Below, piece after piece: positions 27,813-64,000 of a DNA stretch of 64,000 nucleotides; the first letter of the stretch is position 1, and the number at the start of each line of letters is the position of its first letter. Made by a program: the position numbers and the translations under genes. Below the pieces are notes generated by a model. It saw nothing but the letters and a program-made list of their open reading frames with translations. It was not told the origin of the DNA and searched no databases. Source of the stretch: Methylocystis sp. Sn-Cys (GTDB lineage Bacteria > Pseudomonadota > Alphaproteobacteria > Rhizobiales > Beijerinckiaceae); the NCBI RefSeq assembly GCF_016745395.1, contig NZ_JAERVJ010000006.1:124001-188000 (forward strand). The letters are read 5' to 3'.

Positions 27813-27969
27813 GAGATATCCTTGCGAATGTTTTTTTGAGAACCGTTTTTCGCGTGGCGAAACGCGCCGAAGCCTGGCGTCTCGCATGCTGTCGAAAAAG
27901 ATCGTTTCGGCAAAGCTTCGCTATTTGTGCGTCGCCTCCCATCGACAAGGATCCCCGCGGTCGACGCCT

Positions 27970-28746: not shown

Positions 28747-28815
28747 CCTCAAATCTCTTTCTTCTTCATTTAGCTTGACCGCGCGAGGCGGCGCAGCCAG
28801 GCGCTTCACAAAAAA

Positions 28816-29964: not shown

Positions 29965-30003
29965 CGCGCGCTTCCTTACGAATGCGAAAGTTTTCCTTGA
30001 TCT

Positions 30004-32142: not shown

Positions 32143-32173
32143 CGGTCAGGTCCGTTTCCTCGCAACTACGAAA

Positions 32174-34786: not shown

Positions 34787-34789
34787 GGT

Positions 34790-36421
34790 TCAGCTCGCCA
34801 TAGCGGGCGCCGTTCGATGCAAGCCCGGCCCTGCGATGGCGTGCTCGGCGACCTGGCGCAATGCGAGATAATCGATCTTCCCGTTGGCGTTCTTCGGCAA
34901 AGCGTCCAAATGGCGCGCAAGATGCGGGATCATGTATCGCGGCAGCCATGCGCCGCAGTGGCGCTTGATCTCGATTGCGCCGGGCGGCGCGGCGCCTGGG
35001 CGCACCGAATAGAAGGCCGCCAATGTCTGGCCGGTCTCCGTGACGACGCCGATGGCGGCAGCTTCGATAATCGCGGGATGCCGTGACAAGGCCGCCTCGA
35101 TCTCGCCAAGCTCGACCCTGTTGCCGTTGATTTTCAGCATCCGGTCCTTGCGCCCGCAATAATAGAGCAGCCCGTTCTCCCGCGTGACCAGATCGCCCGT
35201 CGCGTGACGGCCTGTCCGATGGTTGTCGTGATTGGCCGGATCGATGCGATTGAAATAACCCGCGGTGACGCAGTCACCGGCGACGATCAACTCGCCGATC
35301 TCGCCGTCTTTTTCCACGGGTAGGCCCTCGCCATCGATCACCATGGCGATTTGCTCTGGCAGCGGCAGGCCGATGGGAATCGGTCTCTCCTGCTCGAGGT
35401 CGCTCGGGCGCACTTTGTGAAAAGTGCAGACGTTCGTTTCCGTCGGACCGTAGAGATTATAAAGCGCGCATGTTGGCGGAAGCTGCTTTGCGAGCGTTCT
35501 GAGATGCTTGATCGGGAACGGCTCGCCGGCGAACAGCACGCGCTCGAGCCTTGCTGAGACTGCAGGGGTCAGCGCGCCGCTGCTCGCCAGCATCGTCAAA
35601 AGCGAGGGCACGCAATACAGCGTCGTCGCGCGGTGCTGGGAAAGACCGTTGGCCAGCGCACAAATGTCGCGCTGCTCGTTCTCACGAACAATCCAGACCG
35701 CTGCGCCGACGGTTGCCGCCGCGAATAGATCGAACGTGCTCAGATCGAAGTGGAATCCGGCATGATTGACAAAAACGTCGCTGGCCGTCAGCTCGAACTC
35801 CTCGACCGCCCAGCCGATGAAGCGATTCAGATTCTTGTAGCTGATCTGCACGCCTTTCGGCATTCCAGTGGAGCCGGAAGTGAACAAAATCGCCGCTATG
35901 TCGTCGGGGCCTACCCTGGCCGGTTCGGGCAAAGACGCCGCGCGCGCCGGGGTTTCATGCAGGGGCGCGACGACGTCCGTCTCCACGCCCGCCGTCAGGA
36001 CTGGCCAATCCCCGCCCTCGCCGTCGAGAAGCAGGACGAGGCGCAACGACGCCGGCAGATCGCCGGCAAGCGCGTCAAATCTTTCGCGGTCGGTCACGAG
36101 TATGGCTGGCTCGGCGCTCGCGACGATCTTGCGCCCGCGTTCGGCGGGCTGCGCGCCGTCGAGCGGAACATAAGCGGCGCCCGCCTCCATCGTCGCATAA
36201 ATGGCCGTGACAAAGAGGTCGCTTTTTGGCGCCCAGATCGCGACGCGTTCGCCCCGGGCGAGGCCCGCGCGGGCGAAACGCTGCGCCCAGTGTCGAACCC
36301 GTCGATAAAAATCGCCATAAGCGATGGCGTCGCCTCCGACAAAGGCCGCGCGGTCGCCGTGAACGAGAGCGGCGGCGCGCAGCGCGTCGATGACCGTCGT
36401 GAAATTTCGTACAGGCCGCAT
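34790..36421 (-). CDS. pigI: L-prolyl-AMP ligase PigI (adenylation enzyme)
   Basis: A 543-residue stand-alone adenylation enzyme. Core motifs: ILFTSGSTGMPKGV (A3), NHAGFHFDLSTFDLF (A4), YGPTETNVC (A5), TGDLV (A7) and KNANGKIDYLAL with the catalytic Lys (A10). PigI (RedM) activates L-proline and loads the PCP PigG. The start at 36421 has AAGGAATTTCC upstream and lies 11 bases after the pigH stop; the frame continues upstream but overlaps pigH. Proline specificity is inferred from the cluster, not from the pocket code. Confidence 0.88.
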   Translation of the reverse strand: MRPVRNFTTVIDALRAAALVHGDRAAFVGGDAIAYGDFYRRVRHWAQRFARAGLARGERVAIWAPKSDLFVTAIYATMEAGAAYVPLDGAQPAERGRKIVASAEPAILVTDRERFDALAGDLPASLRLVLLLDGEGGDWPVLTAGVETDVVAPLHETPARAASLPEPARVGPDDIAAILFTSGSTGMPKGVQISYKNLNRFIGWAVEEFELTASDVFVNHAGFHFDLSTFDLFAAATVGAAVWIVRENEQRDICALANGLSQHRATTLYCVPSLLTMLASSGALTPAVSARLERVLFAGEPFPIKHLRTLAKQLPPTCALYNLYGPTETNVCTFHKVRPSDLEQERPIPIGLPLPEQIAMVIDGEGLPVEKDGEIGELIVAGDCVTAGYFNRIDPANHDNHRTGRHATGDLVTRENGLLYYCGRKDRMLKINGNRVELGEIEAALSRHPAIIEAAAIGVVTETGQTLAAFYSVRPGAAPPGAIEIKRHCGAWLPRYMIPHLARHLDALPKNANGKIDYLALRQVAEHAIAGPGLHRTAPAMAS

Positions 36422-36432
36422 ATGGAAATTCC

Positions 36433-38562
36433 TTAGAGCGACGCGCCGGAAAATGCAGGCGCGCCCTGCGGTTCGCAACGAAGGCCAACATCCGTCGCGC
36501 TGTCGATTAGAATCTCGGCTGCGAGATCGAGATCCTCGAGCGTGTGTTCCGAGGTCACGCTGATGCGGAGTCTCGCGTCGCCAAGCGCCACCCCCGGATA
36601 AACGACAGTCTGGCAGAACATTCCCCGCGCGCGGACAAGGCGGCCAAATTCCAGAGTCTTCGTCTCGTCGCCGATCACGACTGGTATGATCGCGCTCGCC
36701 GACTGACCAAGATCGAAGCCAGCGCTCAACAGCAAACCGCGCAGGCGATGGATGTTGCTCCACAATCTTTCCAGCCGCTGCGGCTCTCTTTCCATAACGT
36801 CGATCGAAGCGATCAGCCCCGCGGCCACGGAGGCCGGAATCGTCGCCGCGAACACATAAGAATTCGAATAGAAGCGCAGATATTCGACGACTTCGCCTTT
36901 GGCCGCAACGAAGCCGCCGACGCCCGAGAGCGTCTTGCTAAAGGTTCCGAGCTCGAGATCAACCTCGCCTTTCATACCGAAATGTTCGCTCGTGCCGGCG
37001 CCTGTTTTTCCCAGGACGCCGGTCGCGTGGGCGTCGTCCACAAGCACTTTCGCGCCGTATTTGCGCGCCAGCGCAACGACCTTCGGCAAATCGACGATAT
37101 CGCCATGCATGCTGAACACGCCGTCGGTGACGATCAGCTTGCCGCCCGGATGGTCGGCCCATTTTTCCAGCGTGCGTTCGAGCGCATCGACGGCGTGCGG
37201 ATATATTTTCTTGGATGCCACCGACAGCTTGCAGCCATCCTGGATGCTCATGTGATTAATGGCGTCGGTGAAGATGAGATCGTCATGTCCTGCCAACGCC
37301 GATATGCAGCCGAGATTAGCCGAGTAGCCGGACGGGTACACGATTGCGTCATCGGCGCGTTTCAGCCGGGCGAGACGGCGTTCGAGCTCCTTGTGGAGAA
37401 CATTGGAGCCGCCGATCAGCCGACAGCCGGTGTTTGTCGCGCCGTAACGCCGGGCCGCGTCCGCGATGGCGTCGATCACTTCGGGGTGATTGGCGAGGCC
37501 CAAATAATTGTTGGACGCGAACATGAGGAACTCGCGCCGCCTGCCGGTGATTTCATCGAAAATCACCGCGCGGTTGCGGCATTTGCTTTCGAGCGGCATA
37601 CCATACCAATATAGTTGTTCCGCCTGTTTGCCGCGATAGAAGGTGTTGAACTCGTACGCCTTGTGGAAGAGGTCGCGATGGGGCAGCCCGATGAAGTCCT
37701 TCATCGTGCGGTTGTCGCCGCTGGGTGCGGCGAAACGATCGCGCGCGCTCGCAACACGCTCGCGCGTTTCGACGAGCGTTTCGATCTTATGGGCGTCGGA
37801 CGCGCGCAAGAAGGCGTGAAGTTTTTCCATCGTGTCGCAGTCGGAGAGACGGACAACCTCCGGCACGCCACGCTCATCGCGCAGTCTATTGCGCAGCGAT
37901 TCGACGGCGCCTTCTCGCAGCCCCATCGCCGAAAAGCTCGGAAGCTCGACGGATTCGAAACTCGCGGGTTTCGCCTCGCTCCCGCTTAACCCAGCGCTTC
38001 TGGCGTCCGCGCGAGCGAAGATGGCGATCATGTCGCCGATCGTTACGAGTTCCGCGGTAACGTCGCGCCGGGCGACGTCGAGGGTCGCCGCCGTCTCCGC
38101 GAGCACGTCGATCAGCTTCGCCGCGTCGAGACCCAGATCCTCGCACAGTCTGGCGTCTTCGATCAATCGAAGCCGCGAGTGGCCTGTATGCCTCTCGAGC
38201 GTCGCGATCACCGCCTCGAAGATGGGGTCGCGATCTGTGCCGTTTTCGTCGACCGCTTTATCGGGAGCAGGCATCGGTCTGCACGCGCCGTCATTATCCA
38301 GGCGGGAGCGAACGAGCTGGACGAGATCGTCAACCGTTCGCAGACCGCGACCCGTCGATTGCAAGCTCACGCCATAGGCGTTTCCGATGTCGGCGAGGAT
38401 GGAAACCAGCACGATGCTGTCAACTCCGAGATCGCCCTCGAATTCGGCGTCGGCCGTGATGTCGTCGCGCGCGTATCCGGTGTGACGTTGAATGACGTCG
38501 ACGGTCGTCTCCCATGGCGAGGATTCGACGCGCCGCGCATTTTCCGCGATCATGGCAGTCAT
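36433..38562 (-). CDS. pigH: PigH: two carrier domains fused to an alpha-oxoamine synthase
   Basis: A 709-residue protein. Residues 15-90 form a carrier domain with LGVDSIVL (Ser49). Residues 115-185 form a second carrier-like domain with LGLDAAKL, where Ala147 replaces the phosphopantetheine Ser. Residues 290-709 are an alpha-oxoamine synthase (KAPA-synthase fold): FASNNYLGLANH, DDAHATGVLG and the PLP Lys in TFSKTLSGVGG. PigH (RedN) carries the malonyl unit and joins the extended chain with serine to close the second pyrrole. AGGAG lies seven bases before the ATG. Two carrier domains are normal for the family; the lost Ser is notable. Confidence 0.9.
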   Translation of the reverse strand: MTAMIAENARRVESSPWETTVDVIQRHTGYARDDITADAEFEGDLGVDSIVLVSILADIGNAYGVSLQSTGRGLRTVDDLVQLVRSRLDNDGACRPMPAPDKAVDENGTDRDPIFEAVIATLERHTGHSRLRLIEDARLCEDLGLDAAKLIDVLAETAATLDVARRDVTAELVTIGDMIAIFARADARSAGLSGSEAKPASFESVELPSFSAMGLREGAVESLRNRLRDERGVPEVVRLSDCDTMEKLHAFLRASDAHKIETLVETRERVASARDRFAAPSGDNRTMKDFIGLPHRDLFHKAYEFNTFYRGKQAEQLYWYGMPLESKCRNRAVIFDEITGRRREFLMFASNNYLGLANHPEVIDAIADAARRYGATNTGCRLIGGSNVLHKELERRLARLKRADDAIVYPSGYSANLGCISALAGHDDLIFTDAINHMSIQDGCKLSVASKKIYPHAVDALERTLEKWADHPGGKLIVTDGVFSMHGDIVDLPKVVALARKYGAKVLVDDAHATGVLGKTGAGTSEHFGMKGEVDLELGTFSKTLSGVGGFVAAKGEVVEYLRFYSNSYVFAATIPASVAAGLIASIDVMEREPQRLERLWSNIHRLRGLLLSAGFDLGQSASAIIPVVIGDETKTLEFGRLVRARGMFCQTVVYPGVALGDARLRISVTSEHTLEDLDLAAEILIDSATDVGLRCEPQGAPAFSGASL

Positions 38563-38598
38563 TACTGACTCCTAATGCCTAGAATGATGAAAAATCGC

Positions 38599-38859
38599 TC
38601 ACGCTTGCGCGGCGAAAGCGTCTGACTGCAATCGCTCGACCAAATCGATTATCGCTCGCACAGAGGCGAAGTTATCCGGCGTGACCTCTCGTAGCGGGAT
38701 GGCGACGCCAGCTTCGCGATTAAGCAGATCGACCAAATCAAAAAGCGCGCTCGAGTCGAGGAAGTTGAGTTCCAGAAGGGGGGTATCCAGCTCGATCTGA
38801 TCCGACTCGCAACCCGCACACGTTTCGGCGATAAGCAGCAGAATCTTATTTGCCAGCAT
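38599..38859 (-). CDS. pigG: Peptidyl carrier protein PigG
   Basis: An 86-residue free-standing carrier protein with a four-helix pattern and the attachment site LDSSALFDL (Ser36). It would hold the prolyl, then pyrrolyl, group between PigI, PigA and PigJ. The ATG at 38859 is preferred over a TTG four codons upstream because TTGGAGGAAAT lies directly before it. It sits 22 bases after pigF and 36 before pigH. Confidence 0.88.
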   Translation of the reverse strand: MLANKILLLIAETCAGCESDQIELDTPLLELNFLDSSALFDLVDLLNREAGVAIPLREVTPDNFASVRAIIDLVERLQSDAFAAQA

Positions 38860-38881
38860 TATTTCCTCCAAATGCTCTCAG

Positions 38882-39895
38882 TCAGGCTTTTTCGCCGATC
38901 AACAGTTTGCGTGGCCCGGGGATTGTCTGGGCTCGTGTGTTGACGAACCCAGCATCACGGAAACGTCCGAGGTATTCCTCTGTCGTGGATTCGACGCCCC
39001 CGTCGGTGGATAAAAGCATGTTGATCGAAAGAAGCGATGTGAAGAGCGGCCCGCTCTCGTCGTCGTTGAGCGGCGTTTCACTTGCAACAAAAGTTGCGCC
39101 AGACGGCATGGCCGCCAATATGTTTTCGAGAATTGTCCTTTGGCTTTCGATGGCGTAGTCGTGCAGCATCCAGCCGAGGTGAACGAGATCGAAGCCGCGA
39201 GGAAGGTCGCCTTCTAAGACATTGCCTTCGAAGACGGCAATGTGATCCTTGAAGCCTCGCGCGTCGAGCTTCTCGCGCGTGAAGGCCGCGGCCTGCGGAA
39301 GTTCGCAAACCGCAACTTCTAGCTTAGGATGGCTTCTGGCGACCGACATCGGCAATGAGCCGCATCCGGAGCCGATATCGATGAACCGCCGGTAGGGCGA
39401 GAAATCGAAGGATTCGATCATGCCGTCGACGAAAGGCTGCGCGAGGACGCCCAGAAATTCCTGGAAATCCGCAACGTCTCTCGGATTCTGATAAAGAATG
39501 TCGAACCAACTACGATTGTCTCCAAACACGGCCGTGCGCCGATCCTCGTCTTGGCGAATCGCCTCCGCACATTGGCCCCACAGCGGGTAAAGAAAAACGT
39601 CGCAGTGGCGCGCCATCCACCCCATCCATTGCGGCGACGTGCTGACCAGGCAGCGTTTGGCGGCATCGGAGAGGCGATATTCATCGTTTTCACGAGAAAT
39701 AAGCTTCATGGCTTCGAGCGCGATCAAAAGTCGCTTTCCGGAGGCAAGCGGGACGCCCGCCCTACGGCACACCACCTCGGCGCGCGCTGGCGTATCAATG
39801 GCGTCGAATATCCGCAACTCCAACGCGGCGGCGACTGTTTTCGACTGGAAAAATCCCGTCAAAATGCCGGCGATTTCCTTTACTGCTGACTCCAA
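38882..39895 (-). CDS. pigF: O-methyltransferase PigF
   Basis: A 337-residue class I methyltransferase of the small-molecule O-methyltransferase type. It has an N-terminal winged-helix dimerisation domain (about residues 1-100), SAM motif I RFIDIGSGCGSLPMSVA, and a C-terminal LGWMLHDYAIESQRTIL segment carrying the catalytic His region. PigF (RedI) methylates the hydroxyl of the bipyrrole to give 4-methoxy-2,2'-bipyrrole-5-carbaldehyde. It lies 12 bases from pigE and 22 from pigG. Confidence 0.88.
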   Translation of the reverse strand: MESAVKEIAGILTGFFQSKTVAAALELRIFDAIDTPARAEVVCRRAGVPLASGKRLLIALEAMKLISRENDEYRLSDAAKRCLVSTSPQWMGWMARHCDVFLYPLWGQCAEAIRQDEDRRTAVFGDNRSWFDILYQNPRDVADFQEFLGVLAQPFVDGMIESFDFSPYRRFIDIGSGCGSLPMSVARSHPKLEVAVCELPQAAAFTREKLDARGFKDHIAVFEGNVLEGDLPRGFDLVHLGWMLHDYAIESQRTILENILAAMPSGATFVASETPLNDDESGPLFTSLLSINMLLSTDGGVESTTEEYLGRFRDAGFVNTRAQTIPGPRKLLIGEKA

Positions 39896-39907
39896 GGCTC
39901 AGTCTCC

Positions 39908-44934
<5,027 letters not shown>

Positions 44935-54735: not shown

Positions 54736-55425
54736 CTATTGGGCGCCGCGACCGACGCGCGTCGCGATCCAGACGACGTGCCGGGCCCCGCCTCGTCCGC
54801 CATTGGCGCGAACCTTGATCTCCTCGACGCCGAACCCCGCCTTGTGGAGTCGCTGTGTGAAGCTGCGATCCGGGGCGCAAGACCAGACGGCCAGGACGCC
54901 GCCGGGACGCAAGGCTTTGCGGGCCGCCGTCAATCCCGCGCTGTGATAAAGCCCGTCATTGGCTTCGCGCGTCAGCCCCTCGGGGCCGTTATCCACGTCT
55001 AGGAGGATTGCGTCATAGGACCCCCGCCCCGAATGAATGAGGCGGCCCACATCCGTTTCCTGGATCGAGACGCGCGGATCCGTCAGACTCCCCCCGTGTA
55101 ATTCGGCCATTGGGCCGCGCGCCCATGCCACTACGGCTGGGACGAGTTCCGCGATGACGACTCGCGCCTTCGGATCGAGGACCGCAAGCACGGCGCGCAA
55201 AGTAAAACCCATCCCAAGCCCGCCGATGAGGATGCTCGGCCCTGGGCAAGAGCGAATTCTCTCATATGAGAGTGTGGCGAGCGCCTGCTCGGATCCACTC
55301 AAACGGCTGTTCATCAGTTCATTATTGCCGAGCATGATCGAAAATTCGGCTCCCCGGCGCATGAGTCGCAGCGCGCCCTCGCCGCCAGGTATTTGCGCCG
55401 TGTCGATCAAAGACCAGGGAATCAC
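54736..55425 (-). CDS. Spermidine synthase-like SAM-fold protein (GTG start)
   Basis: A 229-residue Rossmann protein of the polyamine synthase/methyltransferase type. SILIGGLGMGFTLRAVL is the glycine-rich motif I, VVIAELVPAVVAWARG the acidic end of strand 2, and YDAILLDVDNGPEGL the D-rich active-site loop. It lacks the N-terminal beta domain of true spermidine synthases. The GTG start has GAAGAGG upstream. It follows the DUF938 gene by 18 bases, so the two are likely cotranscribed. Reaction unknown. Confidence 0.75.
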   Translation of the reverse strand: MIPWSLIDTAQIPGGEGALRLMRRGAEFSIMLGNNELMNSRLSGSEQALATLSYERIRSCPGPSILIGGLGMGFTLRAVLAVLDPKARVVIAELVPAVVAWARGPMAELHGGSLTDPRVSIQETDVGRLIHSGRGSYDAILLDVDNGPEGLTREANDGLYHSAGLTAARKALRPGGVLAVWSCAPDRSFTQRLHKAGFGVEEIKVRANGGRGGARHVVWIATRVGRGAQ

Positions 55426-55443
55426 GCTCGCCTCTTCAGTTCG

Positions 55444-56088
55444 TCAGAGATGCTCTTTCAACGCCGGCGTCGGCTGTCTCATCACGGCGCTGCGGCGAAA
55501 AGTCAAACTTAGATTATTCGCCGGCATTTCCACAATGTCGGGTCTTTCGAAGCCTGCCTGGCGGCCAAGATCGGCCACTGTTTCGAGATCACGCACGCCC
55601 CAGCAGGGATTCTGCGCGCGAAGGCCCGCGTCGAATTCAGCGTTGCCCGGCGCGGTATGAGCGCCGTCCCGTTTGTAGGGGCCATAAAGATAGAGCGGCG
55701 CGCCGGCCGGCAGAATCGCGCCTGCATTGTCGAACAAGCCCACCGTCGCCGCCCATGGCGAAATATGGATCATGTTGATGCAGATGACGGCGTCGGCCCG
55801 CTCGATTGGCCAGGGCGCGTTCGCCGCATCGAGAGCGAGCGGCGCCCGCACATTCTGGGCGCCAGAGCACGCGATCCACGCCGCGACGCTCGCGCGGGCC
55901 TTTGCGCTGGGGTCCGATGGCGCGAACGTCAGGTTTTTCAGGTGGGCCGCGAAATGCACTACGTGTTCGCCGGAACCACTCGCGATCTCCAACACAAGCC
56001 CCTGTTTGGGCAGAACCGCCCGCAACACATCCAGGATGGGCCCTCGGTTGCGGGCCGCTGCGGTCGAGAAAAGGCGATCGTCGTTCAT
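55444..56088 (-). CDS. DUF938-family SAM-dependent methyltransferase
   Basis: A 214-residue DUF938 protein. It opens with RLFSTAAARNRGPILDVLR, motif I is VLEIASGSGEHVVHFA, and INMIHISPWAATVGLF and LYLYGPYKRDG are family hallmarks. The substrate of this widespread family is not established. The start at 56088 is the first Met of the conserved core; the frame is open upstream to 56208. Confidence 0.82.
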   Translation of the reverse strand: MNDDRLFSTAAARNRGPILDVLRAVLPKQGLVLEIASGSGEHVVHFAAHLKNLTFAPSDPSAKARASVAAWIACSGAQNVRAPLALDAANAPWPIERADAVICINMIHISPWAATVGLFDNAGAILPAGAPLYLYGPYKRDGAHTAPGNAEFDAGLRAQNPCWGVRDLETVADLGRQAGFERPDIVEMPANNLSLTFRRSAVMRQPTPALKEHL

Positions 56089-56263
56089 GCGTTTATCCAG
56101 ATTCCGCGGCTTGAAGGAAACGGGACCGCTGGTCGTCCCGCCCCATCGAGCGGAGATGCCCGACGAGAGAACGCTATGCGAGAGCCAAGCCAATCGAATG
56201 CGCTGCAAAGGAACGCCATCAAAGAGCAGTCAGGCCCCTTTCTCAAGCTTCAATAACGCACGC

Positions 56264-57184
56264 TCATGCAGCCTTGACCCTGTTCTGGTAAATACAGAGA
56301 TGAGCGTAGGCTGCGGAGAGGAGAGGCGCTTTGATCCCCACTTTTTTCCCTCGACGCACCATGTCGCCGATAATCTCTTCCACCTCAATAGAGCGGCCAC
56401 GCTCAATATCCCGATACATCGAAGAGGCCACCGACGAACCTTTGGCGATAATCTGTTGCCGTGTTGCCGTGAGGAAATTATCCGAGGGAGCTTCACCCAC
56501 CGCTCTGACAATCGCGACGATCTCATCTAGAATCTGGAGCGCGAAGGCTTTGCCCTCCGGGCAAGCTTCTACCTCGCCTATTAGCCCGCGCATTAGGCAA
56601 GTGACCGCTCCCAGGGCAGAAAGCAAAATCCATTTTTCCCACATTTCGCAACGGACGCAGCTCGAAAGCCGGGCTCCTATCTGAGCGCTTCGGAGGAACG
56701 CGTCCAGCTCCTGAATCCGCGGAGTCAGGCTGCCGTCGAGTTCGCCATAGGCCAACTCCTGCAGGAGCGAAAGCTGTATAATGCGGCCGTCCTCTTCGAG
56801 AACGGTCATAACTCTCAGAGCGCCGCCAATTACGTTGTGCGGAAATCGCTCCGACAAGATGTCCATATGACGCATTCCGTTGAGGACCGGCAGGATCATC
56901 GTGTTGCGGCCGACCGCCAGTGAAAACGCGTCAAGAGCGGCATCGAGCTGAAAGGCCTTTACGGTTACCAGGATGATATCGTAGGGCTTGGTAATCCTTT
57001 CCGCCGTAATGAATGTCGGGTGGAATATTGTATCGCCAAAGGGGCTGATAATCCGGAGCCCACTCTCTCTTATCTGTGCGGCACGTTCAGGTCGCACAAG
57101 GAAGGTAACGTCACGCCCCGCCTGCGCCAACCGCGTTCCAAGATAGCCCCCCGTTGAACCGGCTCCGATGACAAGCAGCCGCAT
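56264..57184 (-). CDS. Ketopantoate reductase-like NAD(P)H oxidoreductase
   Basis: A 306-residue protein of the ApbA/PanE family. It has an N-terminal Rossmann motif LVIGAGSTGGYLGTRLAQAG, the conserved VTVKAFQLDAAL segment with the family Lys, MILPVLNGMRHMD, and a C-terminal helical domain with the SSMYRDIERGRSIEVEEIIG signature. AGGAGGAGAG precedes the ATG. True PanE makes pantoate, but its position 52 bases below the fumarase-superfamily lyase in the coenzyme M-type operon suggests a pathway-specific reduction. That is inference; it could be an unrelated cotranscribed gene. Confidence 0.75.
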   Translation of the reverse strand: MRLLVIGAGSTGGYLGTRLAQAGRDVTFLVRPERAAQIRESGLRIISPFGDTIFHPTFITAERITKPYDIILVTVKAFQLDAALDAFSLAVGRNTMILPVLNGMRHMDILSERFPHNVIGGALRVMTVLEEDGRIIQLSLLQELAYGELDGSLTPRIQELDAFLRSAQIGARLSSCVRCEMWEKWILLSALGAVTCLMRGLIGEVEACPEGKAFALQILDEIVAIVRAVGEAPSDNFLTATRQQIIAKGSSVASSMYRDIERGRSIEVEEIIGDMVRRGKKVGIKAPLLSAAYAHLCIYQNRVKAA

Positions 57185-57236
57185 GATTCTCTCCTCCTCT
57201 CCTGCGCATGTCGGTGCGTTTGCTGTGCCTTCACGG

Positions 57237-58751
57237 TCAGCAGCCAGCGACAAGCTTTTCGACTCGGCAAAGGAGATCCTTCTCTACTTGCGTGAATTTT
57301 GCCAAATCCGCGCTCGCTTGCGCGCTCAATCGGCGCGCAGACGCCCCATATTCTGCAGCCATCGTTTCGACGACCCTGGGCGCGGCCCCACCGGCCGAGG
57401 ACCGGCTGGCGACGATCTGTTTAGGATCGAGGATCGCCGCCAGCCTATCGGGATCGAGAGAAAGCTCCACGCCCGCCACACGCCGCGCGGACAGATGAAT
57501 CATTTCTACATCAATATCTATCCCCCGCCGTCCGCCTCTGCTCGCCGCGCTGACCACATCGCCAACGATTCGGTACGCTGTCCTGTAGTCGACGCCACAT
57601 TCGAGCATGACGTGCTCGGCTAGGTCGGTCGCTTGGCTGAAACCATTTTCTAGCGCCTTCCATAGACGAGCCTCGTTGACCATCAGAGTGGAGACGACGC
57701 CTCTCGTTAGATCGCTCACCTTGCGCGCATACTCTAAGGCCCGCGGAATTTCACCGTAGGCAAAGATCAGGTTGTCGCTCCGAGCAGATGGGCTTTTAAC
57801 GACCGCAAGGAAGCCAGCAAGACGCCCGATCAACATGCCACTTCCACCGCGTATGATCGATAGCGCGTAGGGGTTGCGCTTCTGTGGCATCAGCACTGAC
57901 GAGCGCGTGTAGGGCCCGGCGAGATCGACATAGTCGAATTCCTGGCTTGACCAGATTTCCAGGTCTTCGGCGAGCTTTGATTGGTTGGATAGTAGACTCA
58001 CGCCCGTCCCCAAGAGATCGATAAACGTATCTGTCTGCCACATCGCGTCTCGCGTATGCTCGATCACCCTGTCGAAACCGAGAAGGTCTGCGACAAACGC
58101 GCGATCCCCAAGCAGGCGGCTCCCGTTGACGCACCCAGCTCCCCCTGGGCTTTCATTGATTTGGCTAAGCGCCGTGCGCAACCGCTCGGCGTCACGCAGC
58201 GCCGGTGGAACGAAGCTTAGAAGATAATGGCCAAAGGTCGATGGCTGGGCCTGCTGCAGATACGTCTGATCGGCCATGAAGGTTTCGGCATGCCGCGCAG
58301 CGATATTGCTTGCAGTTTCAGCGAAATCGGCTGCGGATTTCAACAACTCCGCGGTCAGGCGACGCAATGAAATGCGTAGAGCAACGCGCGCCGCCTCGCG
58401 GCGGGGTCTGCCCGCGTGGAGCCAGCCGGCGACATCTCCAAGCGAAGCTACTACGTATTGTTCGCGTGAATTATATGCTTCGCCAAGCTGCGGATCGTAA
58501 GGAAACTCTGCAGCGTCCGTGTGATAGATTTTCAGCAGCACACCCAAAACCTGGCGCGCGACGCTGTCCGAGATGATTCCGCGATGATGCAGATCGATTA
58601 CATGCCCGAAGTCCGCCATGTTGAGCCCGTGATGCAGAACTGCTGCATCTGCGATCTCCCAGGCGAAGCCAGCTTCGATCAGCTCCTGCGCCGGTCGATC
58701 AGAAGAAGGGCCTTCAATGCGGGCGTGGTAGTCGCGGGTCGGTGAGATCAT
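57237..58751 (-). CDS. Argininosuccinate lyase-like enzyme of the aspartase/fumarase superfamily (candidate XcbD1)
   Basis: A 504-residue lyase-fold protein. The superfamily signature loop is RSSVLMPQKRNPYAL, and the other two conserved regions are recognisable as QPSTFGHYLLSF and the SPGGAGCVNGSRL segment. Length and order match the ArgH type, yet the genes around it are not those of arginine synthesis. In Xanthobacter autotrophicus Py2 two members of this superfamily act in coenzyme M synthesis, and this gene is one of the two here. Which one matches XcbC1 or XcbD1 cannot be settled by reading. Its ATG overlaps the stop of the PLP enzyme gene. Confidence 0.75.
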   Translation of the reverse strand: MISPTRDYHARIEGPSSDRPAQELIEAGFAWEIADAAVLHHGLNMADFGHVIDLHHRGIISDSVARQVLGVLLKIYHTDAAEFPYDPQLGEAYNSREQYVVASLGDVAGWLHAGRPRREAARVALRISLRRLTAELLKSAADFAETASNIAARHAETFMADQTYLQQAQPSTFGHYLLSFVPPALRDAERLRTALSQINESPGGAGCVNGSRLLGDRAFVADLLGFDRVIEHTRDAMWQTDTFIDLLGTGVSLLSNQSKLAEDLEIWSSQEFDYVDLAGPYTRSSVLMPQKRNPYALSIIRGGSGMLIGRLAGFLAVVKSPSARSDNLIFAYGEIPRALEYARKVSDLTRGVVSTLMVNEARLWKALENGFSQATDLAEHVMLECGVDYRTAYRIVGDVVSAASRGGRRGIDIDVEMIHLSARRVAGVELSLDPDRLAAILDPKQIVASRSSAGGAAPRVVETMAAEYGASARRLSAQASADLAKFTQVEKDLLCRVEKLVAGC

Positions 58752-59779
58752 GTCATTCCATCTCGAGATTTGGCGGGCGGTTGTGTGATTCGATTTGCGG
58801 CCCGGTCGGCGACAGCGAGAAATCCCCCCGTATGCCAGTAGACGACAGAGCCTGCCGGCCGGCTTAATGAATCTCCGAGCCAGATCATCGCCTTGCCGTT
58901 GTATGTCGTGTCGACCAGTAACCGGCTACGGCGCGTGATCTCGTCAATGAACATTTCCTCGTGCCTGTCGCAGACTCCGAATCCCGCGCCGCGGCCGTCG
59001 ACGAGTCGCCACTTGCAGTGAACGGATCGCAGTGCGCTTCGTCCACCTCCGCAAGCGGTCGCCATCGCGTTGATCACGGGCGACAACTCCTCAGGCGGTC
59101 GAGACACACAGACGCCGACGACTTCGATATTGAAAGCTCCAGCGTCATTTTCGTTTTCAAAATCGTGTTTGAATCCGGAGACAAGACCAGCAATCGTTCC
59201 GCCCGATCCCACCGGGATAACGACGGTAACGTCGCGCATTCCGACGTCCGCAAGTTGCTGTCTGAACTCTCCGGCCGCGTGAGCGTATCCCAACGCGCCG
59301 ACGACGGTTGCGCCGCCACGAGGGACGAGATAAGGACGACGCCCTTTAGCCCTGAGATCATTGACGCATTGTTTCGCGGCGTCATCCATGCTCGCACGGT
59401 TGGCCGATCCCGTGAACATCACTGTCGCGCCCGCGGCCAGGGAGAAAGCGAGCGCAATCGGTTCACGATGTGAAACCTCTCCGTAACACACTTGGTAGAC
59501 CGCAATTCCATGCCTCGCGCATGCGGCCGCCATCAGCGCCGCAAAGTTGGATGTCGGTCCTCCACAAACCACCATGCAGTCTGATTCCTGGGCAATGGCG
59601 TCTCCCAGGATGAACTCGATCGTCCTTACCTTGTTGCCGCCCCACGAGTAGCCCGTGAGATCGTCTCTCTTAATCCACAAATCGTCGACGCCAAGCACTT
59701 CGCCAAGATCCGAACCTCTCTCGAGCGGTGTCGGAAAGGCGCCGAGCTCGACCCGTGCAACTGGCCTCATTGCCAGCAT
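58748..59779 (-). CDS. D-cysteine desulfhydrase/ACC deaminase-like PLP enzyme (candidate XcbE1)
   Basis: A 343-residue fold-type II PLP enzyme. The N-terminus FPTPLERGSDLGEVLGV and IKRDDLTGYSWGGNKVR with the PLP Lys are typical of D-cysteine desulfhydrase and ACC deaminase. VIPVGSGGTIAGLVSG binds the phosphate and VYWHTGG is near the C-terminus. In bacterial coenzyme M synthesis a PLP enzyme performs the thiolation step. It overlaps both flanking lyase genes, showing a tight operon. D-cysteine breakdown is the alternative role. Confidence 0.75.
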   Translation of the reverse strand: MLAMRPVARVELGAFPTPLERGSDLGEVLGVDDLWIKRDDLTGYSWGGNKVRTIEFILGDAIAQESDCMVVCGGPTSNFAALMAAACARHGIAVYQVCYGEVSHREPIALAFSLAAGATVMFTGSANRASMDDAAKQCVNDLRAKGRRPYLVPRGGATVVGALGYAHAAGEFRQQLADVGMRDVTVVIPVGSGGTIAGLVSGFKHDFENENDAGAFNIEVVGVCVSRPPEELSPVINAMATACGGGRSALRSVHCKWRLVDGRGAGFGVCDRHEEMFIDEITRRSRLLVDTTYNGKAMIWLGDSLSRPAGSVVYWHTGGFLAVADRAANRITQPPAKSRDGMT

Positions 59780-61110
59780 TCCGATTCCAACGCCCTGCGG
59801 CGTCCCGCCGCCTCAACCACGCGATCGACCATCAACGCGCATGACCCAAAGTCTACCCTCGCAAGCTCCGAGAGTTCGTGTTGCGTTGCAAAGCCTTGCA
59901 GCAGGCTCGTGAGAGAAACTTTTTCCTCGGCACCCGCACGATAAGCCTCTTGAAGCAGCATTTGCGCACGGTGCTTGCCAAGACGAGCGGACATCACGCT
60001 CAGCAAATGCTCGGACGCGGGTACGTTGGACAGATTGCGCCGCATCGCGGCCATATCAATCTCGAGCCCGCAGAGCAGCTCTCTGGACATGGCGGCTGCA
60101 GCCAAAACGGAATGACATAACGTCGGAAAGACATGCCACTCGATTTTCCAGTGCCGCCCATCTCGCTCATGTTCATGGACGAGCGAGTCGGTAAGAATAT
60201 TGGACTGGGCGCGCGCCAGTTGCGCGAGCGTCACGATCTGCTCGCTGCGTTCGGGATTACGCTTGTGCGGCATAGTGATACTCCCCACGGTCGCGTTTTC
60301 CGATCGTTCACGAAGCTCGCCGATTTCGCTACGCTGCAAGACGTAAACCTCATTGGCGATGCGAGCGAAACTTGTCGCGGCCATGGCAAATACATGGGCG
60401 AATTCGGCAACGCGATCTCGACAAGATAGCCAGGAGATCGCCGGCTCGCGCAATGAGAGCCGACGGCAAAATGCAGCGCGCAGGTCGAGCCCAGAATCTC
60501 CGAAGAAGGCCAATGCTCCGACCGCGCCGCCGAGCTGTCCAACGAGCCACCGTTCCTGAGCGCCGCGCATGCGTTCGAGATGACGACCGATTTCATCCGC
60601 CCACGAAGCGAGTTTGAAACCGAAGGAAATCGGCGCCCCTAACTGCCCGTGCGTCCGCCCCGCCATGGCCGTCACGCGATGTTGGCGCGCGAGCTCGAGC
60701 AACGCGCCCTCCAGCATCCACAAGTCTCGCCAGAGCAACGCGCCGGCAGCTTTCATCTCCAGCACTTGCGCTGTGTCGGACACATCCTGCACTGTCGCGC
60801 CAAAATAGACATATTCAGACGACGTAGCGGGCAACAGCTTTCGCAGCGTTTGTATCATGCCAAGCGTAGAGTGACCCGTTGACCGCGTTCGCTCGGCGAT
60901 GCGATCGAGTGGCAGCTCGGCGCCGCGAAGGGCGCCGATGTCTTCAGCCGCTGCAACCGGGATAATGCCGCATTCAGCCTGAGCCTCGGCAAGAGTCACG
61001 ATCACTTCCAGCCATCGCGCTACCCGCGCGGTTTCACCGAAAATCTTATGACTCTCGGGCGTGGACCACTGGTGGCCGAAGATCTTGGAGTCGATCATGT
61101 GCGCGTCCAT
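59767..61110 (-). CDS. Adenylosuccinate lyase-like enzyme of the aspartase/fumarase superfamily (candidate XcbC1)
   Basis: A 447-residue protein of the adenylosuccinate lyase/carboxymuconate cycloisomerase branch. GRTHGQLGAPISFGFKLASW is conserved region 2 with the catalytic His, and VGSITMPHKRNPERSE is the mobile signature loop with the catalytic Ser. GGTAGGAG precedes the ATG. XcbC1 of Xanthobacter belongs to this superfamily and eliminates phosphate from phosphosulfolactate to give sulfoacrylate. This gene lies nearest to the phosphosulfolactate synthase gene and best fits that step. purB function is unlikely in this context. Confidence 0.75.
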   Translation of the reverse strand: MDAHMIDSKIFGHQWSTPESHKIFGETARVARWLEVIVTLAEAQAECGIIPVAAAEDIGALRGAELPLDRIAERTRSTGHSTLGMIQTLRKLLPATSSEYVYFGATVQDVSDTAQVLEMKAAGALLWRDLWMLEGALLELARQHRVTAMAGRTHGQLGAPISFGFKLASWADEIGRHLERMRGAQERWLVGQLGGAVGALAFFGDSGLDLRAAFCRRLSLREPAISWLSCRDRVAEFAHVFAMAATSFARIANEVYVLQRSEIGELRERSENATVGSITMPHKRNPERSEQIVTLAQLARAQSNILTDSLVHEHERDGRHWKIEWHVFPTLCHSVLAAAAMSRELLCGLEIDMAAMRRNLSNVPASEHLLSVMSARLGKHRAQMLLQEAYRAGAEEKVSLTSLLQGFATQHELSELARVDFGSCALMVDRVVEAAGRRRALESECWQ

Positions 61111-62009
61111 GGGACTCCTACCTTTCGGACGATCCGATCGATCGCTTCCCGAACTTCCGCAAGAGACGCGCCCCACGGCACATATGTCGCTCGCGAACGC
61201 TCCTCGACGCCTTCTTGGATGAGGCAACATCGTGCGATTGTCTGCGCACCGCCGAGTCGCCCATCCAAAAAGCGGTTCGGGCATATATCGACAATGGGCG
61301 CCGTGGAGCCATAAAACCAGCGATGGATCTGTTGGGAACGCTCGCAGCCGAGCAGTATCCAGTCTCGTTTGGAAGGCCTCTCATCGAGGAAGGAAACATT
61401 TGCGCCGGTGATGTCGACGCCGGCCCCTCGGCAGGGCGCCAGCACTTCGGCGGGAAGCGGATCGTAGGCTCTCTCCAGCTCCTCTCGGCTGTCGACGAAA
61501 CTCGGAACCGCGACGATGGGAGGTAAATCCTCCGCCATGTCCAGAACACGCTGCACCTGATCTAGCAACTTCGAGGGAAAGGGAGGCACAACGTCGAAGA
61601 CATTCAACATTAGAGGCGCCGGATTCAGGAGGAAACTCACGTGCGAATAGCGCCCCTCGACTACAATGCAGGATGCTCGGGGATGCGCCATCGCTATGCG
61701 CGCGAGCTGGGAAGGAACCGCCGTGTCGATCGCCGGCGCGACGACGTAACGGCAGGCGTTGGCAGGCGCGAGCACTCGCACCTGCGTAATTCTTGAGAAA
61801 AGCCCAGAATCCGCGGGACGCGCAACCTCGAGGACAGCCGAGTCGCCGCCACATCGCGCGACGATGAAACGCGTCCGCATATATGCTTCTCGGCCCGAAA
61901 AGTGTTTTATGAGCCAATCCGCGTCAAGGTTATCGACATTCGTGCTGAGCGCGACTTGGCGGTACCGCGTCGGCGTGACGTTGGGAGCAGACGGCTCAAA
62001 CGCGAACAT
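61095..62009 (-). CDS. Uncharacterised 304-residue protein inside the coenzyme M-type operon
   Basis: No family could be named with confidence. The protein is soluble, with no signal peptide or membrane helix. Notable strings are ALSTNVDNLDADWLIKHFSG and REAYMRTRFIVARC near the N-terminus, VDVVPPFP-type strands in the middle (VFDVVPPFPSKLLDQVQRVL), a cysteine-containing APCRGAGVDITG segment, and VPWGASLAEVREAIDRI at the end. The start at 62009 is chosen because GAGGCAAAG lies directly upstream; it overlaps the synthase gene by 14 bases and the lyase gene by 16. Such overlap implies that it acts with them. Confidence 0.7.
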   Translation of the reverse strand: MFAFEPSAPNVTPTRYRQVALSTNVDNLDADWLIKHFSGREAYMRTRFIVARCGGDSAVLEVARPADSGLFSRITQVRVLAPANACRYVVAPAIDTAVPSQLARIAMAHPRASCIVVEGRYSHVSFLLNPAPLMLNVFDVVPPFPSKLLDQVQRVLDMAEDLPPIVAVPSFVDSREELERAYDPLPAEVLAPCRGAGVDITGANVSFLDERPSKRDWILLGCERSQQIHRWFYGSTAPIVDICPNRFLDGRLGGAQTIARCCLIQEGVEERSRATYVPWGASLAEVREAIDRIVRKVGVPWTRT

Positions 62010-62811
62010 CTTTGCCTCTTTCCCCCTCGATTGCATAAGAGTTTGGGAGGATTCCCAGCGTGTCGGCGCGTAACCCTCGCCGAAGCGCCTCGAGGCTGAT
62101 CAGCTCATCGACGAGAATATTGCCGAGATTGACGTCTGATCCGAACTGCCGAATAAGAAATGCCTGCTGTGCACGTTGCGGCGCCTCATAGATAAGGCGG
62201 TCCGCCCGGCGGCTTCGCGCGAGCGCGTGGAGCACATTATGCCGGACCTTGCCGCAATCATCGTAGAGGCCGACTGTTCCGCTCTCTCGTCCTTCCACGA
62301 CGATCCAGTCGGAACCGGCCATCAAGTCAGTTTCAATCTGGGAGATCCAGTCGACCGCCGATAGGATCTTACTTGGATCCTTGCTTCCAATCTCCGACAT
62401 CACTTCGAACCCGAAAGACCGGGCGCGGGCGATAAGCATCTGCTTATCGCAGTACGGCATATCTGTCGCGCCGTCCGAGATTTCCACGCAATCGAAACCG
62501 ACCTCTTTTGCGAACGCGAAGAAGCTTTCAGTTCGCCCCTGAAGCCAAGCTGCTTCCAACAGTGTGCCACCGGTGCAAGTCTTGACTTGAGCAGCGCGCA
62601 GAACGGCGACTTTCGCTCGGGCGGTCGGATCGACGTAGGATGTGCCGAAGCCAAACTTCCAGACGTCGATGATCCGAGCCGCCGAAGAAAGGATGCTCTC
62701 CGTCGCCAGCAGCGTACAGCCTTTGTCGAGAACGTGCGTGATCCCTTTACAACGCGGTTTCGCCGAACGTGGGGGAAGATCAAGGAAGGTTGGAAGCTCA
62801 CTACCAGGCAT
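61996..62811 (-). CDS. Phosphosulfolactate synthase (ComA/XcbB1 family)
   Basis: A 271-residue TIM-barrel protein of the ComA family, which adds sulfite to phosphoenolpyruvate to form phosphosulfolactate, the first step to coenzyme M. Conserved strings: THVLDKG, VWKFGFGTSY, CTGGTLLEAAWLQG, FDCVEISDGA, VMSEIGSKDPS, IVVEGRESGTVGLYDD, YEAPQRAQQAFLI, SDVNLGNI and LRADTLG. These cover the whole family length. It is the first gene of the six-gene operon. Distant ComA homologues with other roles exist, but the downstream lyases and PLP enzyme support coenzyme M synthesis. Confidence 0.88.
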   Translation of the reverse strand: MPGSELPTFLDLPPRSAKPRCKGITHVLDKGCTLLATESILSSAARIIDVWKFGFGTSYVDPTARAKVAVLRAAQVKTCTGGTLLEAAWLQGRTESFFAFAKEVGFDCVEISDGATDMPYCDKQMLIARARSFGFEVMSEIGSKDPSKILSAVDWISQIETDLMAGSDWIVVEGRESGTVGLYDDCGKVRHNVLHALARSRRADRLIYEAPQRAQQAFLIRQFGSDVNLGNILVDELISLEALRRGLRADTLGILPNSYAIEGERGKDVRV

Positions 62812-62907: not shown

Positions 62908-63357
62908 TCAGGGCGCCCCCGCAATGTTGGGCTCGCCTGCCGCCTCGACAGAAATTTCAACATCGGAGCGAAGAGTGTTGGTTACGTAGCACAGGCTCTC
63001 CGCACGACTGATTAGGGCATCGATCATCGAGGGGTCACATCCCATGCGAGCCGATATATGAATCGCGCGAAAGCGAGGGCCGTCGTAAGTCCCCGTTGCC
63101 GTCACCGCCAAGTGCTGCAACTCGACCGATAGCCTTTTGGCGCTAAAAGCGATTGCTAGCGTAAAGCAGGACGCCACAGCCGAAAGCAGAAGCTCCGTGG
63201 GTTGAGGCCCACTGTCATCTCCTCCGACGCTTTTCGGCTCATCCGCGACGAGAACGAAATTTCCTGCGCGTATGTCGCAGCGCAGCCCTCCGCGCCACGA
63301 ACTCTCCACCGATCGTTTGAAACGCCCTGATGCCATACTAAAGACCCCATATTGCAT
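62908..63357 (-). CDS. OsmC-family thiol peroxidase-like protein
   Basis: A 149-residue OsmC/Ohr superfamily protein. GPQPTELLLSAVASCFTLAIAF carries the first redox Cys with the ADEL-type helix, and SLCYVTNTLR supplies the second Cys. The family reduces organic hydroperoxides with a pair of cysteines. The start at 63357 has CAGGAATTC upstream; a second start lies at 63336. It shares direction with the coenzyme M-type operon and is divergent from the nitrilase gene. Confidence 0.85.
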   Translation of the reverse strand: MQYGVFSMASGRFKRSVESSWRGGLRCDIRAGNFVLVADEPKSVGGDDSGPQPTELLLSAVASCFTLAIAFSAKRLSVELQHLAVTATGTYDGPRFRAIHISARMGCDPSMIDALISRAESLCYVTNTLRSDVEISVEAAGEPNIAGAP

Positions 63358-63679: not shown

Positions 63680-64000
63680 ATGGCTGAAAAACGAATTGTC
63701 AAAGTCGCCGCCGTGCAGATCGCTCCAGATCTGGACACCTCTGAAGGCACTCTAGATCGCGTGCTCGCGGCAATCGCGGAAGCTGCCCAAAAGGGCGTAC
63801 AGTTCGCAGTGTTTCCAGAGACATTCGTTCCCTGGTACCCGTATTTCTCTTTCGTCCGCCCACCCGTTCTTAGCGGCGCGGACCACATGCGCCTCTATGA
63901 GGAGGCTGTGGTTGTTCCAGGGCCGGTGACCGAGGCGGTAGCGCAGGCCGCGCGGCGGCACAAAATGGTGATCGTTCTCGGCGTCAACGAGCGCGATCAC
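63680..64000 (+). CDS. Nitrilase, N-terminal part (gene continues beyond the window)
   Basis: The first 107 residues of a carbon-nitrogen hydrolase. VKVAAVQIAPDLDTSEGTLD opens the fold, FAVFPETFVPWYPYF carries the catalytic Glu, and MVIVLGVNERD is the strand before the catalytic Lys. The FVPWYPYF pattern points to true nitrilases (nitrile or cyanide substrates) rather than amidases. GGGAAGGA precedes the ATG. The catalytic Lys and Cys lie off the right edge. It may be the first gene of a Nit1C-type cluster; that needs the next genes. Confidence 0.85.
   Translation, partial: MAEKRIVKVAAVQIAPDLDTSEGTLDRVLAAIAEAAQKGVQFAVFPETFVPWYPYFSFVRPPVLSGADHMRLYEEAVVVPGPVTEAVAQAARRHKMVIVLGVNERDH

What the first reader, a model, noticed from the sequence alone, without database searches (positions are those of the whole stretch)
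56264..62811. Six-gene operon matching bacterial coenzyme M biosynthesis in a methanol-dehydrogenase-bearing alphaproteobacterium
Seen: a ComA-family phosphosulfolactate synthase, two aspartase/fumarase-superfamily lyases and a D-cysteine-desulfhydrase-like PLP enzyme in one run of overlapping genes. Known: Xanthobacter autotrophicus Py2 makes CoM from PEP with XcbB1, XcbC1, XcbD1 and XcbE1, which belong to exactly these families (sulfite addition, phosphate elimination, decarboxylation, thiolation, reduction). CoM in bacteria is known mainly from alkene/epoxide users. Methane monooxygenases turn alkenes into epoxides, so CoM would be useful in a methanotroph. To my knowledge this is not a standard methylotroph trait.
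Basis: partly seen in the sequence, partly recalled or inferred. Interest (0 to 1): 0.9.

Follow-up and report, generated by a model that had tools for sequence, protein, structure and literature searches.

The report
Coenzyme-M-type genes in cyanide-nitrogen cluster
A methane-eating bacterium carries, besides its ordinary coenzyme M genes, a second and very different set that sits inside a cluster resembling cyanide-nitrogen-use genes, and the same pairing recurs in dozens of bacteria in which no alkene-epoxide enzyme was detected, which suggests a new use for a coenzyme-M-like thiol.

Summary
In detail: window 62811-57237 (minus strand) encodes ComA, DUF7714 (XcbA family), XcbD-like, XcbE-like and XcbC-like proteins in overlapping frames. 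A ketopantoate-reductase-like gene follows after about 52 bp and is not part of the conserved set. The genome is a Methylocystis with pMMO; the tested parts of the window are collinear with M. iwaonis plasmids. The epoxide reading fits another locus better: contig C19 of the same genome carries a standard xcb set (over the curated cut-offs) with an epoxyalkane:CoM-transferase-like gene.

The window operon belongs to a separate clade found in 67 further loci, mostly Actinomycetota plus Nitrobacter, Sphingobium, Paraburkholderia and Ruegeria. It lies among nit1C-like or nitrile-hydratase genes (nit1C is tied to cyanide assimilation in Pseudomonas) in 40 of 40 loci with full flanks, against 0 of 8 epoxide xcb loci; 0 of 9 ordinary nit1C loci carry xcb. 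Recurrent partners are OsmC, a CoA-disulfide-reductase-like flavoenzyme, cobalt nitrile hydratase or nitrilase, AllF/G/H-type transcarbamoylase and carbamate kinase. No epoxyalkane:CoM transferase was found in 39 such genomes. I infer that a CoM-type thiol carries cyanide-derived nitrogen: CoM-SCN, then S-carbamoyl-CoM, then carbamoyl phosphate. Linkage is shown; product and chemistry are not.

The parts
61996..62811 (-). ComA/XcbB-like phosphosulfolactate synthase, 271 aa
   Evidence: PF02679 264 bits; TIGR03849 267 bits, cut-off 280; keeps 51 of 54 residues invariant in both epoxide-type groups
61095..62036 (-). DUF7714 / XcbA-family protein (start probably ATG at 62009, where listed homologues begin), role unknown
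   Evidence: PF24830 283 bits; NF052538 318 bits, cut-off 150; 96% to Methylocystis iwaonis and 51-75% to the other 119 listed hits, 42-65% to 66 of the 67 genome loci, 47% over a 94-residue piece in the other, 38-42% to epoxide-type XcbA
59767..61098 (-). XcbD-like aspartase/fumarase-superfamily lyase (ORF opens at 61284; homology and the M. iwaonis annotation place the start at 61098)
   Evidence: NF052536 509 bits, cut-off 600; 91 of 109 shared invariant residues kept; start
58748..59779 (-). XcbE-like PLP enzyme of the D-cysteine-desulfhydrase/CuyA group; GGNK stretch (PLP lysine motif, recalled) present in the translation
   Evidence: NF052537 210 bits, cut-off 450; CuyA 180; 56 of 81 shared invariant residues kept
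57237..58751 (-). XcbC-like lyase, argininosuccinate-lyase branch
   Evidence: NF052535 422 bits, cut-off 575, against 234 bits for another lyase (ArgH-like) of the same genome; 73 of 86 shared invariant residues kept
56264..57184 (-). PanE/ApbA-family reductase, seen only in the Methylocystis versions; probably an accessory
   Evidence: PF02558 and PF08546; 98% in L021 and no match in the other 67 loci at E 1e-8; start
62908..63357 (-). OsmC-family protein with two conserved cysteines, first gene of the run
   Evidence: PF02566 65 bits; OsmC in 53 of 69 loci; both cysteines in 53 of 53
63680..64000 (+). start of a Nit6803-family nitrilase (337 aa, runs on past the window to contig position 188693); first gene of the divergent nit1C-like run (radical SAM, GNAT, AIR-synthase-like, AllF, GT, AllG, MSMEG_0572-like, FAD disulfide reductase at contig C17 188689-201169)
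   Evidence: family name from the annotation of the M. iwaonis homologue

Best explanation
This is a second, divergent CoM-type biosynthesis operon, plasmid-borne, that belongs to a nit1C-like cyanide/nitrile-nitrogen assimilation module and not to epoxide metabolism. SHOWN: all five Xcb-related families, the separate clade, the recurrent company of nit1C-like, nitrile-hydratase or nitrilase, AllF/AllG(/AllH), carbamate kinase, OsmC and flavin disulfide-reductase genes in several phyla, and no EaCoMT found in 39 such genomes. INFERRED: the product is CoM or a close mercaptosulfonate. Proposed mechanism: OsmC oxidises the thiol (disulfide or sulfenic acid); cyanide attacks it to give CoM-SCN; nitrile hydratase (nitrilase in Methylocystis, Nitrobacter and Sphingobium) hydrates it to S-carbamoyl-CoM; the AllFGH-type transcarbamoylase phosphorolyses that to carbamoyl phosphate plus CoM-SH; carbamate kinase makes ATP, CO2 and NH3; the CoA-disulfide-reductase-like enzyme recycles disulfide. 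This scheme gives the thiol pathway, the hydratase and the transcarbamoylase a role together. My estimates: CoM or close relative as product 0.75; part of a cyanide/nitrile nitrogen module 0.85; this exact S-cyano/S-carbamoyl route about 0.3. In Methylocystis the route must end differently, since AllH and nitrile hydratase were not found.
For: Clade and order: the actinobacterial epoxide clusters (JS614, two of NBB4) share the order ComA-XcbA-XcbD-XcbE-XcbC and lie closer to the window clade than to the proteobacterial Xcb clade. Linkage: a nit1C or nitrile-hydratase gene in 62 of 69 loci and 40 of 40 with at least 8 kb on both sides of XcbA; in 0 of 8 epoxide xcb loci (flanks about 6-12 kb), and xcb in 0 of 9 ordinary alphaproteobacterial nit1C loci. 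Nitrile hydratase in 30 loci, nitrilase in 4, both in 0. Hydratase alpha has the motif VCTLCSC (Co type, recalled) in 24 of 29; one representative is nearest to Co nitrile hydratases (290 bits; thiocyanate hydrolase 165). AllG in 39 of 40 such genomes (own included), 1 of 14 controls; 47 linked AllG form a group apart from 5 unlinked copies. For 10 genomes whose xcb flank showed no AllG, the stretch around AllG holds AllF, GT or carbamate kinase in all 10, nitrile hydratase alpha and beta in 5; in 4 of the 10 it adjoins the xcb flank, in the rest it lies elsewhere or on another contig. EaCoMT: best full-length match 34%, 105 bits in 39 genomes; cross-phylum control 49%, 332 bits. [quoted passage not shown]
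Against: XcbE is missing, with no room for it between XcbD and XcbC, in 13 of 63 loci that have both, so the last step differs there or is encoded elsewhere. XcbC, D and E lie under the NCBIfam cut-offs, although JS614 also misses those for ComA, XcbC and XcbE. Methylocystis itself lacks AllH (E. coli control rings) and showed no nitrile hydratase alpha (where no control rang), so the full route is not encoded there as drawn. Its genome already has the C19 set, so why a second is needed is unexplained. In Pseudonocardia dioxanivorans the AllG/AllF/kinase genes lie megabases from xcb, and in Paraburkholderia elongata no AllG was found. Relatives of the flavoenzyme also occur in 6 of 8 epoxide loci (62-257 bits). 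The functions of the radical SAM, GNAT, AIR-synthase-like, GT and MSMEG_0572-like proteins are not accounted for. Loci are not independent: most are Actinomycetota. No enzyme was assayed.
Confidence: 0.5

Rival explanations
1. One reading: it is a (redundant) CoM supply for detoxifying epoxides made by methane monooxygenase.
For: The host has a pMMO-type and a soluble di-iron monooxygenase gene and an epoxide/CoM-type locus; epoxide-type CoM clusters occur in methanotrophs (PMC11507031 passages).
Against: No EaCoMT, CoA-transferase or SDR homologue of the epoxide loci appears in the M. iwaonis counterpart of this region (L021, 37 kb), which is collinear with the window; no EaCoMT found in 39 genomes with this clade; 40 of 40 full-flank loci have nit1C or nitrile-hydratase genes.
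Confidence: 0.1
2. Same nitrogen module, but the thiol is not CoM: for example 2-mercapto-3-sulfopropionate, the cysteine adduct that precedes it, or a glycosylated/acylated CoM conjugate made with the cluster's GT and GNAT, used as the cyanide carrier.
For: XcbE absent in 13 of 63 loci; XcbE keeps the smallest share of shared invariant residues in the window (56 of 81); a GT and a GNAT are recurrent neighbours (24 and 42 of 69).
Against: All five Xcb-related families are kept in 49 of 69 loci, several of the others being cut short; the actinobacterial epoxide clusters, which presumably make CoM, are the nearest relatives; GNAT occurs in 9 of 9 and GT in 4 of 9 nit1C loci without xcb.
Confidence: 0.22
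3. The thiol is a general redox buffer (OsmC plus disulfide reductase as a peroxide-reducing couple) that protects nit1C metabolism; it never carries cyanide.
For: OsmC cysteines are conserved in 53 of 53 and a CoA-disulfide-reductase-like enzyme is in 40 of 69 loci.
Against: Does not explain the recurrent company of a transcarbamoylase subfamily and carbamate kinase; Actinomycetota normally have mycothiol (recalled).
Confidence: 0.1
4. The module runs in reverse: carbamoyl phosphate is put on a thiol and dehydrated by the AIR-synthase-like protein (as HypF/HypE do, recalled) to make a cyano donor for a metal cofactor or natural product.
For: AIR-synthase-like protein in 49 of 69 loci; HypE is of the same superfamily (recalled).
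Against: Nitrile hydratase, nitrilase and carbamate kinase point to breakdown; nit1C is described as essential for growth on cyanide (PMC11049912 passages).
Confidence: 0.06

Closest known systems
Xcb pathway of Xanthobacter autotrophicus Py2 (plasmid pXAUT01) and the C19 locus of this genome
   Same: Same five protein families: ComA/XcbB, XcbA, XcbC, XcbD, XcbE
   Different: 31-46% identity over all epoxide-type sets, different gene order, separate clade, no EaCoMT/2-KPCC/CoA-transferase partners seen; XcbC, D and E below the NCBIfam cut-offs
Actinobacterial alkene/vinyl-chloride CoM clusters (Nocardioides JS614 pNOCA01, Mycolicibacterium chubuense NBB4 plasmids)
   Same: Same gene order ComA-XcbA-XcbD-XcbE-XcbC; nearest clade; a pyridine-nucleotide-disulfide family gene alongside
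   Different: Those lie beside CoA-transferases, SDRs and FAD-dependent (2-KPCC-like) oxidoreductases; the window clade lies beside nit1C, nitrile hydratase and AllFGH genes
nit1C cluster (Pseudomonas CECT 5344, NCIMB 11764; Synechocystis sll0783-0787)
   Same: Nitrilase, MSMEG_0568 radical SAM, MSMEG_0567 GNAT, sll0787 AIR-synthase-like and MSMEG_0572 proteins are all present in this genome
   Different: Ordinary nit1C loci have no xcb, OsmC, AllF, AllG or CoA-disulfide-reductase-like gene (0 of 9, one of them on a 6.7-kb contig); the window-type MSMEG_0572 is a divergent subfamily (214 against 281-289 bits); 30 of 69 loci have nitrile hydratase, only 4 a nitrilase
Oxamic transcarbamylase AllFGH and carbamate kinase of E. 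coli (PMC11326118, start of abstract seen in the listings)
   Same: AllF/AllG/AllH and carbamate kinase homologues together
   Different: Linked AllG forms a group apart from 5 unlinked copies (no E. coli AllG in that tree); allantoin genes were not searched for; Methylocystis lacks AllH

Membership tests
Bacterial CoM biosynthesis (Xcb) | ComA, XcbA, XcbC, XcbD and XcbE families together | tested here: met
Bacterial CoM biosynthesis (Xcb) | NCBIfam curated cut-offs of XcbC, XcbD and XcbE | tested here: not met
   422/575, 509/600, 210/450; JS614, an alkene user (recalled), also misses XcbC 332/575 (its annotated gene is short at the N-terminus) and XcbE 313/450 but passes XcbD 688/600; Py2 passes all three
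Bacterial CoM biosynthesis (Xcb) | XcbA family cut-off | tested here: met
   318 bits, cut-off 150
Bacterial CoM biosynthesis (Xcb) | residues invariant in both epoxide-type groups | tested here: inconclusive
   51/54 ComA, 58/78 XcbA, 73/86 XcbC, 91/109 XcbD, 56/81 XcbE kept in the window
Bacterial CoM biosynthesis (Xcb) | CoM is made | not testable with these tools
   needs assay or LC-MS
CoM-dependent epoxide pathway | EaCoMT beside the operon or, for its relatives, in the genome | tested here: not met
   none in the collinear M. iwaonis region; an EaCoMT-like gene is on C19 of this genome; 0 of 39 other genomes of the clade
nit1C cyanide-assimilation cluster | nitrilase, MSMEG_0568 radical SAM, MSMEG_0567 GNAT, sll0787 AIRS-like, MSMEG_0572 | tested here: met
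   four TIGR models over cut-off; nitrilase by its likeness to L021 and to the nitrilases of 9 ordinary nit1C loci and the annotation of L021
nit1C cyanide-assimilation cluster | growth on cyanide depends on it | not testable with these tools
   mutant test needed
AllFGH transcarbamoylase | three subunits AllF, AllG, AllH | tested here: not met
   Methylocystis: AllF-like 385 bits (cut-off 433), AllG on C17, AllH not found. AllH is seen in 41 of 69 loci

The most novel reading that the evidence does not exclude
A previously unknown pathway in which coenzyme M (or a close mercaptosulfonate) is a one-carbon/nitrogen carrier for cyanide: S-cyanation, hydration by nitrile hydratase to a thiocarbamate, phosphorolysis to carbamoyl phosphate with ATP gain, and thiol recycling. 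CoM would then have a third biological role, outside methanogenesis and alkene metabolism, in Actinomycetota and some Pseudomonadota.
Probability: 0.3. Interest if true: 0.95.

Novelty: new variant of a known kind. Interest (0 to 1): 0.8.

Why it matters
[quoted passage not shown] If this clade makes CoM, the cofactor is more widespread and has a use in nitrogen or cyanide metabolism. It also offers a testable role for transcarbamoylase and nitrile-hydratase genes beside nit1C-like genes, several of which still lack a function.

Tried and rejected

Papers: nothing on the combination was found by the searches (coenzyme M + nitrile hydratase + phosphosulfolactate: 1 hit, a sponge transcriptome by its listing; coenzyme M biosynthesis + cyanide: 3 hits, unrelated by their listings; 0 hits; 3 hits, none with cyanide), in an open-licence library only; the 24 nit1C papers were not read for CoM, save PMC11049912, which does not hold the term. 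The two key Xcb papers (PMC9457059, PMC5892593) are not held; what I say of the Xcb chemistry is recalled or from NCBIfam names.
Full report
What is there. On the minus strand, window 62811-57237, five genes run head to tail with overlaps: ComA, DUF7714 (XcbA family), an XcbD-like lyase, an XcbE-like PLP enzyme and an XcbC-like lyase. An OsmC-family gene (63357-62908) precedes them and a PanE/ApbA-like reductase (57184-56264) follows after about 52 bp. Divergent from OsmC, at 63680, a nitrilase opens a second run that continues beyond the window on the same contig: MSMEG_0568 radical SAM, MSMEG_0567 GNAT, sll0787 AIR-synthase-like, a Pnap_2097 protein, an HTH regulator, AllF (FdrA), GT, AllG, MSMEG_0572-like and a CoA-disulfide-reductase-like flavoenzyme. 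The HTH, AllG, MSMEG_0572-like and flavoenzyme genes are on the opposite strand.

Host. The genome (G000, 4.02 Mb) carries a PF02461 pMMO-type subunit on C14 and two PF02332 di-iron monooxygenase hits on C15. XcbA is 96% identical to Methylocystis iwaonis, and window 1-24000 and 40001-64000 align in full at 97-98% to two M. iwaonis plasmids of 276 and 320 kb (24001-40000 not tested). So contig C17 (267 kb) is plasmid-like.

The ordinary CoM locus is elsewhere. Contig C19 has an EaCoMT-like gene (377 aa, 49% to the methionine-synthase-II-family gene beside the JS614 alkene cluster; that this JS614 gene is EaCoMT is recalled), a CoA-transferase subunit (65% to Xaut_5071) and xcbA-B-C-D-E, with XcbC 792, XcbD 656 and XcbE 519 bits, all over the cut-offs, next to an acetate-CoA-ligase-like gene. 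This kind of locus is already described in methanotrophs: 14 of 150 genomes have EtnE homologues (PMC11507031, passages). Three of 36 other genomes of the genus that were searched have one DUF7714 gene each, and all three are of the epoxide type.

The window operon is another clade. A scan of one genome per species with two DUF7714 peptide patterns gave 67 loci, chosen without regard to context; it will have missed divergent members. A five-protein tree of 72 rows (quick IQ-TREE, unrooted) splits into proteobacterial epoxide clusters (7 rows), actinobacterial epoxide clusters (3 rows: JS614 and two of NBB4) and the window clade (62 rows), each at SH-aLRT 100. The actinobacterial clusters share the window's gene order and are nearer to it than to the proteobacterial ones. 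Hence XcbC, D and E falling under the NCBIfam cut-offs does not exclude CoM as product: JS614 also misses the ComA, XcbC and XcbE cut-offs (its annotated XcbC is shortened at the N-terminus), though it passes XcbD.

Context. Profile HMMs of neighbour families were run over 69 loci (the 67, the window with its continuation, and M. iwaonis). ComA 66, XcbA 69, XcbD 69, XcbC 63, XcbE 50, all five 49, OsmC 53, AIR-synthase-like 49, AllG 48, GNAT 42, AllH 41, flavoenzyme 40, MSMEG_0572-like 36, radical SAM 33, nitrile hydratase beta 30 and alpha 29, AllF 28, carbamate kinase 25, GT 24, nitrilase 4. Of the 40 loci with at least 8 kb on both sides of XcbA, 40 have a nit1C or nitrile-hydratase gene. 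Of 8 epoxide xcb loci (flanks about 6-12 kb) none has one (Fisher p 3e-9, not corrected for relatedness); 6 of the 8 do hold a relative of the flavoenzyme. Of 9 ordinary nit1C loci from Alphaproteobacteria (one only 6.7 kb) none has xcb, OsmC, AllF, AllG or the flavoenzyme. Hydratase and nitrilase never occur together (30 and 4 loci).

Completeness in other genomes. AllG is in 39 of 40 genomes searched (own included; the miss is Paraburkholderia elongata) against 1 of 14 controls. I fetched 12 stretches around AllG: one for each of ten genomes whose xcb flank showed none, a second copy in one of them (L151), and one locus that already showed it (L160). Eleven of 12 carry AllG with AllF, GT or carbamate kinase, and 6 of 12 also nitrile hydratase alpha and beta; L151 showed AllG alone. 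The 47 linked AllG that could be used are separated from 5 unlinked copies by a branch with SH-aLRT 100, which suggests, but does not show, a substrate other than oxalurate.

No epoxide enzyme found. EaCoMT was sought in 40 chosen genomes of the 67, 39 of which were held: best full-length match 34% and 105 bits, higher identities only over part of the length, against 49% and 332 bits for the cross-phylum control. Some are drafts or MAGs, so absence is not certain in each.

Chemistry. The linked nitrile hydratase alpha has VCTLCSC (Co type, recalled) in 24 of 29, VCSLCSC in 1 and no motif in the matched piece in 4; one representative is nearest to Co nitrile hydratases. OsmC keeps both cysteines in 53 of 53; the flavoenzyme has CGIP[YF] in 35 of 47 HMM hits, a set that includes epoxide-locus homologues. 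AllFGH makes carbamoyl phosphate from oxalurate (PMC11326118, start of abstract). A hydratase feeding a transcarbamoylase needs a nitrile on a heteroatom; with a thiol pathway in the same operon, S-CN of that thiol is the simplest candidate. Cyanide cleaving a disulfide to a thiocyanate is textbook chemistry (recalled). This is inference.

Weak points. XcbE is missing in 13 of 63 loci with both XcbD and XcbC (twelve Actinomycetota loci, mostly Acidimicrobiia, and Ruegeria). Methylocystis has no AllH and no nitrile hydratase was seen (where no control rang), so it must use the nitrilase and an incomplete transcarbamoylase, or another route. Carbamate kinase was not sought genome-wide in it. DUF7714 has no recognisable fold relative so far. 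Most loci are Actinomycetota, so the counts overstate independence.

Verdict. Observation right, biochemical family right, biological setting different from the one proposed: a nit-linked CoM-type operon, not an epoxide one. The linkage is solid; product and mechanism are open and directly testable.

Noticed in passing
G000 contig C19 about 198900-211000 (L003): Standard xcb locus with an EaCoMT-like gene, CoA-transferase subunit, a GMC-family oxidoreductase and an acetate-CoA-ligase-like gene: the likely epoxide/CoM locus of this methanotroph.
   Followed up: yes
L051, L054, L058-L060, L062, L066, L073-L075, L077-L079, L081-L085, L087, L090: LarB and LarE in 20 of 69 loci and LarC in 14 (nickel-pincer cofactor synthesis; LarC by Pfam, LarB/LarE names partly recalled) beside the nit-linked xcb operon in Pseudonocardiales; reason unknown.
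   Followed up: no
L035, L036, L038, L040-L042, L048, L067, L071: CbtA-type cobalt transporter gene (f45; one representative by Pfam) near the Co-type nitrile hydratase in Acidimicrobiia.
   Followed up: partly
L005:10881-11414, L031:19943-20431: The MSMEG_0572-like protein of this genome is divergent (214 against 281-289 bits in ordinary nit1C); a member has a weak DsrE match; one Cys-Arg pair is invariant in 43 of 43.
   Followed up: partly
L005:2331-3320: The AIR-synthase-like nit1C protein also scores 251 bits (cut-off 365) with 'methanogenesis marker 2'; a possible link between nit1C and methanogen cofactor genes.
   Followed up: no
window 54736-56208: DUF938 methyltransferase and spermidine-synthase-like genes downstream; a Methylocystis sp. 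MJC1 plasmid has them without a near match to the xcb operon.
   Followed up: partly
L022 (Py2 pXAUT01, Xaut_5067-5070): The second Py2 xcb set shows no XcbE beside XcbD, as in 13 loci of the window clade.
   Followed up: no
L045: A contig of this actinobacterial cluster is filed under Bifidobacterium breve and is nearly identical to an uncultured actinobacterium (L043) in the tree; likely a mislabelled MAG.
   Followed up: no
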